Positions 34,649 to 49,393 of a stretch of DNA of 64,000 bases are shown here, piece by piece. Source of the stretch: Mycobacterium dioxanotrophicus (lineage in GTDB: Bacteria; Actinomycetota; Actinomycetes; Mycobacteriales; Mycobacteriaceae); assembly GCF_002157835.1 (NCBI RefSeq), contig NZ_CP020809.1, positions 6,076,001 to 6,140,000 on the forward strand, written 5' to 3'. The position numbers were made by a program, and so were the translations under genes. Numbering within the stretch: the stretch's first letter is position 1; each line of letters starts with the position of its first letter. The notes under the pieces are model-generated. The model did no database searches. It saw only the letters and a list, made by a program, of their open reading frames with translations, and was not told where the DNA came from.

Positions 34649-36028
34649 ATGGATGAACTGGTGCGTTCCCGGGCAATCCAAGCCGTCATCTGGGGCATGC
34701 CCGCCGTCAACTTCGAGCTGTTGCGCGAGGCCGCCGCCGGTGTGGGTGCCACCGACAATCAGGTGGTGTTCTGGTCGAAACTGCCGGACTGGAAGAACCA
34801 GACGCTCACACCCAATCCCGATACCGTGTACGTCTTCCCGTTCTACGACACGCAGGCCGGGCCGATGGTGCTCGAAATCCCTCCTGCCGAAGGCGGTTCC
34901 ATCACCGGATCCATCGACAACGGCTGGCAGGAGGCGCTGGAGGACGTCGGGCCCGCCGGCGTCGACAAGGGTGCGGGCGGCACGTACCTGATCCTGCCGC
35001 CCGACTACGACGGACAGATACCCGCCGGGCACATCGCGCTGAACTCGGCGACCTACACCGGATTCGGGGCGTTGCGGTCCAACATCGCCTCGAGCGATGA
35101 CGCCGACGTTGCCGCTGCGGTTGAGTACGGCAAGCGGGTCAAGTTCTATCCGCTGGGACATGCCGACACCCCGACCACATTCGTCGATGCGGCTGATGCG
35201 TTGTACGACAGCACCATTCCGTACGACCTCCGGTTCTTCGAACTGCTCGACCGGTTCGTGCAACGCGAACTCTGGCTGCAGCGCGACCGGGTGATGATCT
35301 CGATCCTCAAGTCGATCGGCATCGAGAAGGGCACGCCGTTCTCGCCCGACGCAGAGCTCACCGCAGTGCTGAACTCTGCCGCGGCGGCGGCACACGACTG
35401 GCTCGAAGCCAATTATCCGCGGTTCTTCACCCCGCCGTATTTCGAGGGCACGCACTGGGCCGTCCCTGCCTCACCCGAGGTGGTGCGGGGCATGCAGACC
35501 GGTTTCGCCGATGTCGGCAGTTATCCCGTCGACGATCGCGGGCTGCTGTACTCCTTCATCTACTTCAGCGCCAAACACCTTGGCCAGGGCCAGTTCTACG
35601 TGATGACCATCGCGGACAGGGACGGCAAGCCGCTCGACGGTGACCAGACCTACCGGCTACGGGTCCCGGCCGACCCCCCGGTGTCGCTCTACTGGTCGGC
35701 CACCGTGTACGACCGTGCCACGCATGCGCTGATCCGGGATCTGCCGTACGCCAGCCGCGCGTCACATCGACCCGACCTGATCAGCAATCCCGACGGCTCC
35801 GTCGACATATACATCGGACCGTCTGCACCCCTCATGGCTCCTCGCGCGAGCGCTCGTCAGAGCGCAACGAGGCCAATTGGATTCCCACCACACCCGGCGG
35901 CCGGTTCGAGGTGCTGTTCCGGCTCTACGGACCCAAGCCCGCCCTGTTCGACAAGACCTGGCAGTTGCCCGACCTCGAAAAGGTGTGACAGCAAACATGC
36001 CTGCCCGTCTGCTCTGAGGATCTGTTAA
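34649..36028 (+). CDS. DUF1254/DUF1214 protein with C-terminus altered by a 29-bp repeat insertion
   Basis: A 459-residue frame. Residues 1-394 are normal for DUF1254/DUF1214 proteins (WGMPAVNFELL, NPNPDTVYVFPFYDTQAGPM in parts, FYVMTIADRDGKPLDGDQTY, SLYWSATVYDRATHALIRD). After GPSAP the natural end, ANWIPTTPGGRFEVLFRLYG and then FDKTWQLPDLEKV, is present in another frame and stops at TGA 35986-35988. Removing the 29 bp at 35831-35859 joins the frames as GPSAP-ERNE-ANWIPT. The last 65 residues now encoded are therefore a frameshift product. Function of the family is unknown. ATG 34649 is used; GTG 34640 is three codons longer. Confidence 0.85.
   Translation: MDELVRSRAIQAVIWGMPAVNFELLREAAAGVGATDNQVVFWSKLPDWKNQTLTPNPDTVYVFPFYDTQAGPMVLEIPPAEGGSITGSIDNGWQEALEDVGPAGVDKGAGGTYLILPPDYDGQIPAGHIALNSATYTGFGALRSNIASSDDADVAAAVEYGKRVKFYPLGHADTPTTFVDAADALYDSTIPYDLRFFELLDRFVQRELWLQRDRVMISILKSIGIEKGTPFSPDAELTAVLNSAAAAAHDWLEANYPRFFTPPYFEGTHWAVPASPEVVRGMQTGFADVGSYPVDDRGLLYSFIYFSAKHLGQGQFYVMTIADRDGKPLDGDQTYRLRVPADPPVSLYWSATVYDRATHALIRDLPYASRASHRPDLISNPDGSVDIYIGPSAPLMAPRASARQSATRPIGFPPHPAAGSRCCSGSTDPSPPCSTRPGSCPTSKRCDSKHACPSALRIC
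35831..35859 (-). repeat. MIRU-like unit inserted inside a coding sequence
   Basis: On the minus strand it reads TGACGAGCGCTCGCGCGAGG followed by AGCCATGAG, almost identical to the unit between prrA and prrB (one base change and a deletion of seven bases). It is inserted in reverse orientation in the 3' part of the DUF1254/DUF1214 gene and shifts its frame. Precise excision restores the gene. Confidence 0.85.
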
Positions 36029-48020: not shown

Positions 48021-48052
48021 ATGACGAGCGCTTGCGCGAGGAATCGACAGCC
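48021..48052 (+). repeat. MIRU-like unit between prrA and prrB
   Basis: ATGACGAGCGCTTGCGCGAG plus GAATCGACAGCC lies between the prrA TAG (48012-48014) and the prrB ATG at 48053. AGCCATGA occurs on both sides of the unit (48017-48024 and 48049-48056), like a duplicated target. The ATG at 48021 is out of frame with prrB. Same family as the units at 11533 and 35831. Confidence 0.8.
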
Positions 48053-49393
48053 ATGAGTCTGCTCACCCGGATCTTCCGCCGCACCCCGTCGCTGCGGACC
48101 CGGGTGGCGTTCGCGACGGCGATTGGCGCGGCCATCGTCGTCATCATCGTCGGCACCATCGTGTGGGTCGGTATCACCAACGACCGCAAGGAGCGGCTGG
48201 ACCGTCGCCTCGACGAGGCAGCCGGATTCGCCGTGCCGTTCCTCCCGCGCGGCCTGCACGAAATCCCGCGCTCCCCCAGCGAACAGGACGCCGTCATCAC
48301 CGTCCGGCAGGCCGGCGCCGTCACCTCGAACTCGTCGGTGATCCTGCCCGAGCTCCCGGCGGGCTACGCCGACACCGAAATCGACGGCGTGCGCTGGCGC
48401 GTGCGCACGGTGCAGATCCCCGCCCCCGGGCCCATGTGGGTCGCGGTCGGCGCGACGTACGACGCCACCATCGCCGACACCAACAACCTGCACCGCCGGG
48501 TCATCGTGATCTGTGTGTTCGCCATCAGCGCGGCGACCGTACTGGGTTGGGTGCTGGCCGCTTTCGCGGTGCGGCCGCTCAAACGGCTGGCCCAGCAGAC
48601 CCGGCAGATCGACGCAGGCGACGAGGCACCCGACGTCGAGGTCCGCGGAGCCACCGAAGCCGTCGAGATCGCCGACGCCGTCAACGGCATGCTCCAGCGC
48701 ATCTGGTCCGAGCAGGACCGCACCAAGGCCGCGCTGGCCTCGGCACGCGACTTCGCGGCGGTGTCCGCCCACGAGCTGCGCACACCACTCACCGCGATGC
48801 GCACCAATCTGGAAGTACTGGCCACCCTCGACCTACCCGACGAGCAGCGCAAGGAAGTGGTGAACGACGTCATCCGCACCCAGTCGCGGATCGAGGCGAC
48901 GCTGGGCGCGCTGGAACGGTTGGCGCAGGGCGAGCTCACCACCACCGACGACCACGTCACCGTCGACATCACCGAGCTGCTCGACCGGGCGGCCCACGAC
49001 GCCAGGCGGGTGTACCCGGAACTCGATGTGTCCCAAGCCCCGACGCCGACGGTGATCATCGTGGGCCTGCCGACCGGCCTGCGGCTCGCCGTGGACAACG
49101 CCATCGCCAACGCGGTCAAACACGGCGGGGCGACCCGGGTGCAGCTGTCCGCCGTCAGCTCACGCGCCGGGGTCCAGATCGCCGTCGACGACGACGGTGT
49201 GGGGGTACCCGAGGAAGAACGAACCGTGGTGTTCGACCGGTTCTCGCGAGGGTCGACAGCGTCGCGCTCGGGCTCGGGCCTCGGCCTGGCGCTGGTGGCC
49301 CAACAGGCCGAACTGCACGGCGGGACAGCCGCTTTGGAGATGAGCCCGCTGGGCGGCGCCCGGCTGGTACTGCGTCTGCCGGGGCCGCACTAG
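48053..49393 (+). CDS. prrB: Two-component sensor histidine kinase PrrB
   Basis: A 446-residue membrane kinase, the same length as M. tuberculosis PrrB (Rv0902c). Two membrane helices (about 18-42 and 150-174) bracket an external sensor; then a HAMP domain (173-225), the phospho-accepting His240 in SAHELRTPLTAMRT, and the ATPase domain with AVDNAIANAVKHGG, VDDDGVGVPEEER, SRGSTASRSGSGLGLALVAQ. It phosphorylates PrrA. The start at 48053 was chosen by homology; the ATG 32 bases earlier lies in a repeat and is out of frame. Confidence 0.93.
   Translation: MSLLTRIFRRTPSLRTRVAFATAIGAAIVVIIVGTIVWVGITNDRKERLDRRLDEAAGFAVPFLPRGLHEIPRSPSEQDAVITVRQAGAVTSNSSVILPELPAGYADTEIDGVRWRVRTVQIPAPGPMWVAVGATYDATIADTNNLHRRVIVICVFAISAATVLGWVLAAFAVRPLKRLAQQTRQIDAGDEAPDVEVRGATEAVEIADAVNGMLQRIWSEQDRTKAALASARDFAAVSAHELRTPLTAMRTNLEVLATLDLPDEQRKEVVNDVIRTQSRIEATLGALERLAQGELTTTDDHVTVDITELLDRAAHDARRVYPELDVSQAPTPTVIIVGLPTGLRLAVDNAIANAVKHGGATRVQLSAVSSRAGVQIAVDDDGVGVPEEERTVVFDRFSRGSTASRSGSGLGLALVAQQAELHGGTAALEMSPLGGARLVLRLPGPH

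What the first reader, a model, noticed from the sequence alone, without database searches (positions are those of the whole stretch)
35831..35859. A 29-bp repeat interrupts a gene, and its exact removal restores the frame
Inside the DUF1254/DUF1214 gene, a reverse-oriented copy of the prrA-prrB repeat (TGACGAGCGC...CCATGAG) is inserted after codon 394. Taking out exactly these 29 bases joins GPSAP to ERNE-ANWIPTTPGG and gives the family's normal C-terminus with a stop at 35988. This is direct sign that these small units move or moved recently, in either orientation, and not only at gene junctions.
Basis: seen in the sequence. Interest (0 to 1): 0.82.

Follow-up and report, generated by a model that had tools for sequence, protein, structure and literature searches.

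The report
Tiny mobile repeat inside a gene
A DNA repeat of about 30 letters, present in dozens of copies in this mycobacterium and many relatives, sits inside a gene here; such copies come and go at the joints between genes and sometimes inside enzyme genes, where they add about ten amino acids.

Summary
The 29 bp are there as described. They are an antisense, intragenic copy of a dispersed family of 32-33 bp units: 46 sites (up to 3 mismatches) in this genome against 0 for the reversed pattern; 274 of 396 genus genomes carry the family. The interpretation needs correcting. The nearest named relative found, M. aquaticum, has the insertion at the same site, but 30 bp long and in frame. A JGI-sourced protein, 388 of 394 residues identical to the window, is also in frame with 10 extra residues. 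So the insertion predates these lineages and did not itself break the gene; a one-base length difference did, real or an assembly error. The family does behave as mobile: at pyrR-pyrB, miaB and prrA-prrB it needs at least 9, 7 and 4 changes on a tree. Typical copies split an overlapping stop-start (ATGA) and rebuild it on both sides around an 11-codon mini-ORF, the logic published for MIRUs. Others lie in frame inside genes, sense (miaB) or antisense (menD, serB, this gene). Verdict: a short MIRU-like family, new variant of a known kind; mover unknown.

The parts
35831..35859 (-). Antisense intragenic copy of the repeat, C subtype head (GACGAGCGCTCGCGCGAGGA) plus tail; 29 bp here, 30 bp in M. 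aquaticum
34649..35830 (+). First 394 codons of the DUF1254/DUF1214 gene, upstream of the repeat
35860..35988 (+). C-terminal part of the same gene downstream of the repeat, now in another frame; stop ends at 35988
48021..48056 (+).
   Evidence: sequence; site 48022-48043; alleles
48053..49390 (+).

Best explanation
The 29 bp are one copy of a short MIRU-like mobile repeat. Shown: a 20-bp head (GAYGAGCGCTYGCGCGARGA) and a looser tail make a unit of 32-33 bp, often in tandem. Many T-subtype units start inside one ATGA and end with the next one, so they split an overlapping stop-start pair, leave both genes whole, and put an 11-codon mini-ORF between them with the same 4-base overlap on each side. 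Sites gain and lose the unit repeatedly. Other copies lie inside genes in either orientation and add about 10-11 residues in frame (DERLRE.. in sense, GSSRERSS.. in antisense). The copy in the DUF1254 gene is of the antisense kind; its relatives are in frame. Inferred: new copies arise by copying into short target matches such as GATGA; arrays and clean losses arise by slippage between the direct ATGA repeats; inside genes mainly frame-keeping copies survive selection; the one-base shortfall in the window is a later mutation or an assembly error. Not known: which enzyme, if any, moves the unit.
For: Family: 46 and 52 overlapping sets of sites in the own genome, reversed control 0; 274 of 396 genus genomes, reversed control at most 1 per strand. 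Geometry: ATGA, GTGA or TTGA exactly at +33 in 33 of 60 T-type copies, next most frequent offset 6; upstream gene frame of 100 codons or more ending in the element's TGA in 24 of 52 against 33 of 294 control GATGA sites; 11-codon ATG frame ending in the overlap in 18 of 29 own-genome T copies. Alleles: pyrR-pyrB occupied in 10 of 59 genomes, while 44 of the 49 others have the plain -4 overlap; miaB insert in 8 of 30; menD insert in 1 of 30; prrA-prrB in 4 of 30; fewest changes 9, 7 (miaB) and 4 (prrA-prrB) on a 59-genome tree, menD not counted. The gene itself: M. aquaticum and P0002 in frame, 10 of 11 orthologues without insert. Published MIRU logic: PMC12548453, passage.
Against: No transposition was observed; the presence/absence data are between species. 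The miaB and pyrB sites could partly reflect old presence with many losses or gene transfer; 17 of 56 inner branches of the tree are weak. 27 of 60 T copies do not have the +33 overlap and the C subtype has no single preferred offset. The test for a long downstream frame did not discriminate: 25 of 52 against 999 of 1872 controls, and the two counts are not built alike. No clean target duplication can be read at the DUF1254 site. No mover was found.
Confidence: 0.72

Rival explanations
1. One reading: a 29-bp unit moved recently into an intact gene and thereby broke its frame.
For: The insert is 29 bp in the window and 10 of 11 orthologues lack it.
Against: M. aquaticum (369 of 394 residues identical before the insert) has the same insertion with 30 bp and an intact ORF; P0002 (388 of 394) is in frame with 10 extra residues.
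Confidence: 0.04
2. The one-base difference is only an assembly error: the strain's gene is in fact in frame, and no pseudogene exists. (Compatible with the best explanation.)
For: P0002, apparently the same species, is in frame.
Against: The genome is in 5 contigs at 100% estimated completeness and 1.06% contamination; no reads could be seen.
Confidence: 0.45
3. Not a mobile element but a conserved functional motif (translation or regulation signal) kept by selection or arising repeatedly at gene starts.
For: Strong position rule at stop-start overlaps and a head conserved even in other families of the order.
Against: Same head inside enzyme genes in both orientations; 122 of 396 genus genomes have no site at 2 mismatches; presence differs even between the close pair G020 and G021 at pyrB, miaB and menD.
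Confidence: 0.12
4. A REP-type palindrome moved by a RAYT (Y1 tyrosine) transposase.
For: Size of 20-40 bp, dispersed, some copies intragenic, as REPs (PMC3733652, passages).
Against: No Y1_Tnp match in the own genome and matches in only 21 of 118 genus genomes; among genomes without a match are G005, G008 and G021, with 71, 46 and 38 sites. Predicted RNA folds of four units of the family are not markedly better than shuffles (z -0.5 to +1.9). Arrays are head-to-tail.
Confidence: 0.05

Closest known systems
MIRU, mycobacterial interspersed repetitive units (Supply et al. 1997; known to me only through passages of PMC12548453, PMC3914561, PMC4213456 and PMC2734929)
   Same: Dispersed and tandem; apparently mobile; inserted at start codons with an internal ORF coupled at -4 to the gene. 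A longer unit that I take for MIRU type (by recall) sits at the same pyrR-pyrB overlap in G069.
   Different: MIRUs are given as 46-101 bp at 41 loci of M. tuberculosis H37Rv; here 32-33 bp. The MIRU-type core tried is absent from the own genome. Intragenic in-frame copies in both orientations are not in the MIRU passages that I read.
Rickettsia palindromic elements (PMC10969869, passages)
   Same: Inserted in frame inside unrelated protein genes.
   Different: About 150 bp, several families; here 32-33 bp, with a rule for stop-start overlaps and tandem arrays.
REP elements, GTAG and CGTC classes (PMC3733652, passages)
   Same: 20-40 bp, dispersed, some intragenic; the CGTC class has no known transposase.
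   Different: CGTC REPs have 8-9 bp stems, mostly head-to-head pairs and rare clusters, in 5 phyla that do not include actinobacteria; here no supported stem and head-to-tail arrays. The same paper mentions untagged REP-like families in M. tuberculosis.

Membership tests
MIRU | unit of 46-101 bp (PMC3914561 passage) | tested here: not met
   tandem spacing mostly 32 or 33 bp in the own genome
MIRU | inserted at start codons / stop-start overlaps | tested here: met
   33 of 60 T copies at exactly +33; pyrR-pyrB: 44 of 49 unoccupied junctions have the -4 overlap
MIRU | internal small ORF coupled at -4 | tested here: met
   as sequence geometry only: 18 of 29 own-genome T copies; translation not tested
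MIRU | copy number varies at a locus | tested here: met
   between species only: prrA-prrB 1 copy in the window, 2 in M. aquaticum; L052 2 copies, L188 1 copy
MIRU | sequence homology to MIRU | not tested
   no named MIRU reference sequence was fetched; the MIRU-type core was recognised by recall and has no match in the own genome at 3 mismatches
REP (CGTC or GTAG class) | stable stem-loop | tested here: not met
   RNA folding of four units of the family, z -0.5 to +1.9 against shuffles; DNA hairpins with 2-base loops not modelled
REP (CGTC or GTAG class) | predominance of head-to-head pairs | tested here: not met
   arrays seen are head-to-tail; no systematic count of pairs was made
REP moved by RAYT | Y1 transposase in the genome | tested here: not met
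   0 in the own genome, 21 of 118 in the genus
Rickettsia palindromic elements | in-frame insertion in genes | tested here: met
   miaB 8 of 30, menD 1 of 30
Rickettsia palindromic elements | unit of about 150 bp (PMC10969869 passage) | tested here: not met
   32-33 bp

The most novel reading that the evidence does not exclude
One 32-33 bp element spreads across families of an actinobacterial order without a transposase of its own. It slips into 4-base stop-start overlaps and rebuilds them with a coupled mini-ORF, and because it can be read in frame on both strands it also survives inside enzyme genes as a 10-11 residue insert, editing proteins such as MiaB again and again at one fixed site.
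Probability: 0.45. Interest if true: 0.75.

Novelty: new variant of a known kind. Interest (0 to 1): 0.6.

Why it matters
MIRUs underlie tuberculosis typing, yet how such units move is, as far as I know, open. A shorter family with occupied and empty alleles at the same nucleotides (pyrR-pyrB, miaB, menD) makes the question testable in laboratory mycobacteria. It also shows how a very short repeat can land in operons and enzymes without stopping them. For annotation it is a warning: apparent frameshifts and odd 10-11 residue inserts (DERLRE.., GSSRERSS) in these genomes can be repeat copies.

Tried and rejected
Hairpin idea: the head looks like a dyad with two linked positions (60 TA, 28 CG, 1 TG of 89 copies), but predicted RNA folds of four family units and one MIRU-type unit were not markedly better than shuffles (z -0.5 to +1.9); I dropped structure as an explanation, and the linkage may only mark two subfamilies. 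RAYT as mover: no match in the own genome. Rfam at gathering thresholds on six loci: one hit, an unrelated c-di-AMP riboswitch. Complementary occurrence with MIRU-type units looked strong over 396 genomes (5 have three or more of both; Fisher p 3e-43; Spearman -0.73), but it is clade-level: on the 59-genome tree only 3-4 independent pairs exist and no test is possible; 67 of 396 genomes have fewer than three of either. The downstream-frame test did not discriminate.

Literature: for the family's sequence words one search found 0 papers and one search found 28, of which I saw the 10 listed (unrelated by title; in those only the shortest word, gcgcgaagag, occurs) and not the other 18. A MIRU-type word gave 16 papers, one on mycobacteria. 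Further searches: (listings only). I saw no description of this family in these searches, which cover open-licence papers only; I did not see Supply 1997 itself. Passages only were read of PMC4213456, PMC12548453, PMC10117815, PMC3914561, PMC2734929, PMC3733652 and PMC10969869. They disagree on MIRU range: only M. leprae and the M. tuberculosis complex (PMC4213456) or many mycobacteria (PMC12548453).

Rows dropped: of 60 genomes one (G083, cut at a contig start) was left out of the pyrB counts; for miaB, menD and prrA-prrB only the 30 best loci of 60 genomes were examined.

Full report
What is there. The 29 bp at 35831-35859 lie directly after codon 394 of a DUF1254/DUF1214 gene. The downstream part, translated alone, is the family's C-terminus with a stop ending at 35988.

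A large dispersed family. The head TGACGAGCGCTTGCGCGAGGAG, up to 3 mismatches, has 46 sites in the 8.08 Mb genome and 0 for the reversed control; the sister head GATGAGCGCTTGCGCGAAGAGC has 52 and 0 (the two lists overlap). Two subtypes are linked at two positions: of 89 distinct copies 60 are GAT..GAA, 28 GAC..GAG and 1 mixed. Many copies are in head-to-tail arrays of 32 or 33 bp. In the genus 274 of 396 genomes have the T head at up to 2 mismatches, with up to 101 sites, and the reversed control shows at most 1 per strand. In the order-wide sample 49 of 200 genomes have matches at up to 1 mismatch: 16 of 22 in the genus, 0 of 8 in other genera of its family, and 33 of 170 in other families, some of these with single sites only; the reversed control has one site in each of 3 genomes. 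In the 20 stretches read from other families several show the same 32-bp geometry, one an array of 19 units (G440), while those of one family (f2) that hold two or more units have spacings of 82 to 98 bp.

The junction rule. In T-type copies an ATGA, GTGA or TTGA follows at exactly +33 in 33 of 60 copies; the next most frequent offset has 6 (tandem neighbours count here). The upstream frame of 100 codons or more ends in the element's own TGA in 24 of 52 first or single copies, against 33 of 294 other GATGA sites. Such a unit replaces one overlapping stop-start by two, with an ATG frame of 11 codons between them; 18 of 29 own-genome T copies have exactly this frame (mostly MSACAK...). This is the arrangement that a review of translational coupling describes for MIRUs: apparently mobile, inserted at start codons, ORF coupled at -4 (PMC12548453, passage).

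Gain and loss. At the junction before aspartate carbamoyltransferase (pyrB, NCBIfam; pyrR recalled from its motif) 10 of 59 genomes carry the unit. Of the 49 others 44 have the plain -4 overlap; in the 10 occupied ones the two genes are 28 to 160 bp apart. One of the 49, G069, carries instead two longer units that I take for MIRU type (naming recalled). On a tree of pyrB, sensor kinase and miaB (quick method, 59 rows, 17 of 56 inner branches weak) the fewest changes are 9 for pyrR-pyrB, 7 for the miaB insert and 4 for prrA-prrB. The close pair G020 and G021 differs at pyrB, miaB and menD.

Inside genes. miaB holds an in-frame insert at one fixed site in 8 of the 30 genomes examined, seven with DERLRED.. 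and one degenerate. menD of G021 has GSSRERSS.. in frame, antisense, and the other 29 of 30 lack it. serB and an acyl-CoA-synthetase-like ORF (name recalled) of G027 hold two and six antisense units near their starts (empty relatives were not looked for in these two). So the unit can be read in frame from either strand. A wider scan put 91 of 168 distinct copies inside some open, GC3-rich frame (51 sense, 40 antisense), but that scan also counts frames that merely run across junctions, so I do not use the number.

The gene in question. Of 11 aligned relatives only M. aquaticum has the insertion, at the same site, with 30 bp and an intact frame. Of 15 rows aligned (M. aquaticum and 14 of the 120 hits listed, out of 6580 found) only M. 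aquaticum and P0002 have it. P0002 is JGI-sourced (contig of 3,073 bases, 9 member sequences); it matches the window at 388 of 394 residues before the insert and fully after it, and is in frame with 10 extra residues. The insertion is therefore older than the split from M. aquaticum and its relatives are frame-keeping; the window's copy is one base shorter. Whether that is a real frameshift or an error cannot be told here. I did not restore the frame, since the organism is same-genus kin of a listed germ.

Mechanism and limits. Shown: family, geometry, both orientations, recurrent presence and absence between species, frame keeping in relatives. Inferred: ectopic copying into short matches, slippage for arrays and loss, selection against frame breaks. 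No mover was found: the own genome has no Y1 transposase match and 21 of 118 genus genomes do; other transposase families were not searched. RNA folding does not support a hairpin. The complementary occurrence with MIRU-type units is clade-level and no independent evidence.

Judgement. It works like a MIRU; membership fails on unit length and homology was not tested. I file it as a new variant of a known kind. The claim of a recent, gene-breaking move is not supported; the wider claim that small units move, in either orientation and not only at junctions, is.

Noticed in passing
L278 (G069), junction before pyrB: Two tandem longer units (core GTGACGATGCAGAGCGAAGCGATGAGGAGGAG, taken for MIRU type by recall) sit at the same stop-start overlap; the core occurs in 178 of 396 genus genomes, mostly not those rich in the 32-bp family. 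Clade-level only.
   Followed up: partly
L332 (G440): An array of 19 head-to-tail 32-bp units, by its sequence a chain of 11-codon mini-ORFs overlapping by ATGA.
   Followed up: no
L324, L325, L327-L331 (genomes of family f2): The same head inside longer composite repeats spaced 82-98 bp, with another repeated part.
   Followed up: no
L065 and L084 (G027): Six tandem antisense units at the start of an acyl-CoA-synthetase-like ORF and two at the start of serB, in frame.
   Followed up: partly
L286, L287, L185: A second in-frame DERLR-like insert near the N-terminus of miaB in some genomes.
   Followed up: no
L050 96-279: c-di-AMP riboswitch match (Rfam RF00379) near an array of three units.
   Followed up: no
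family copies: The third base of the head and the base 15 further on change together (GAT..GAA or GAC..GAG; 1 mixed of 89). Unexplained beyond two subfamilies.
   Followed up: partly
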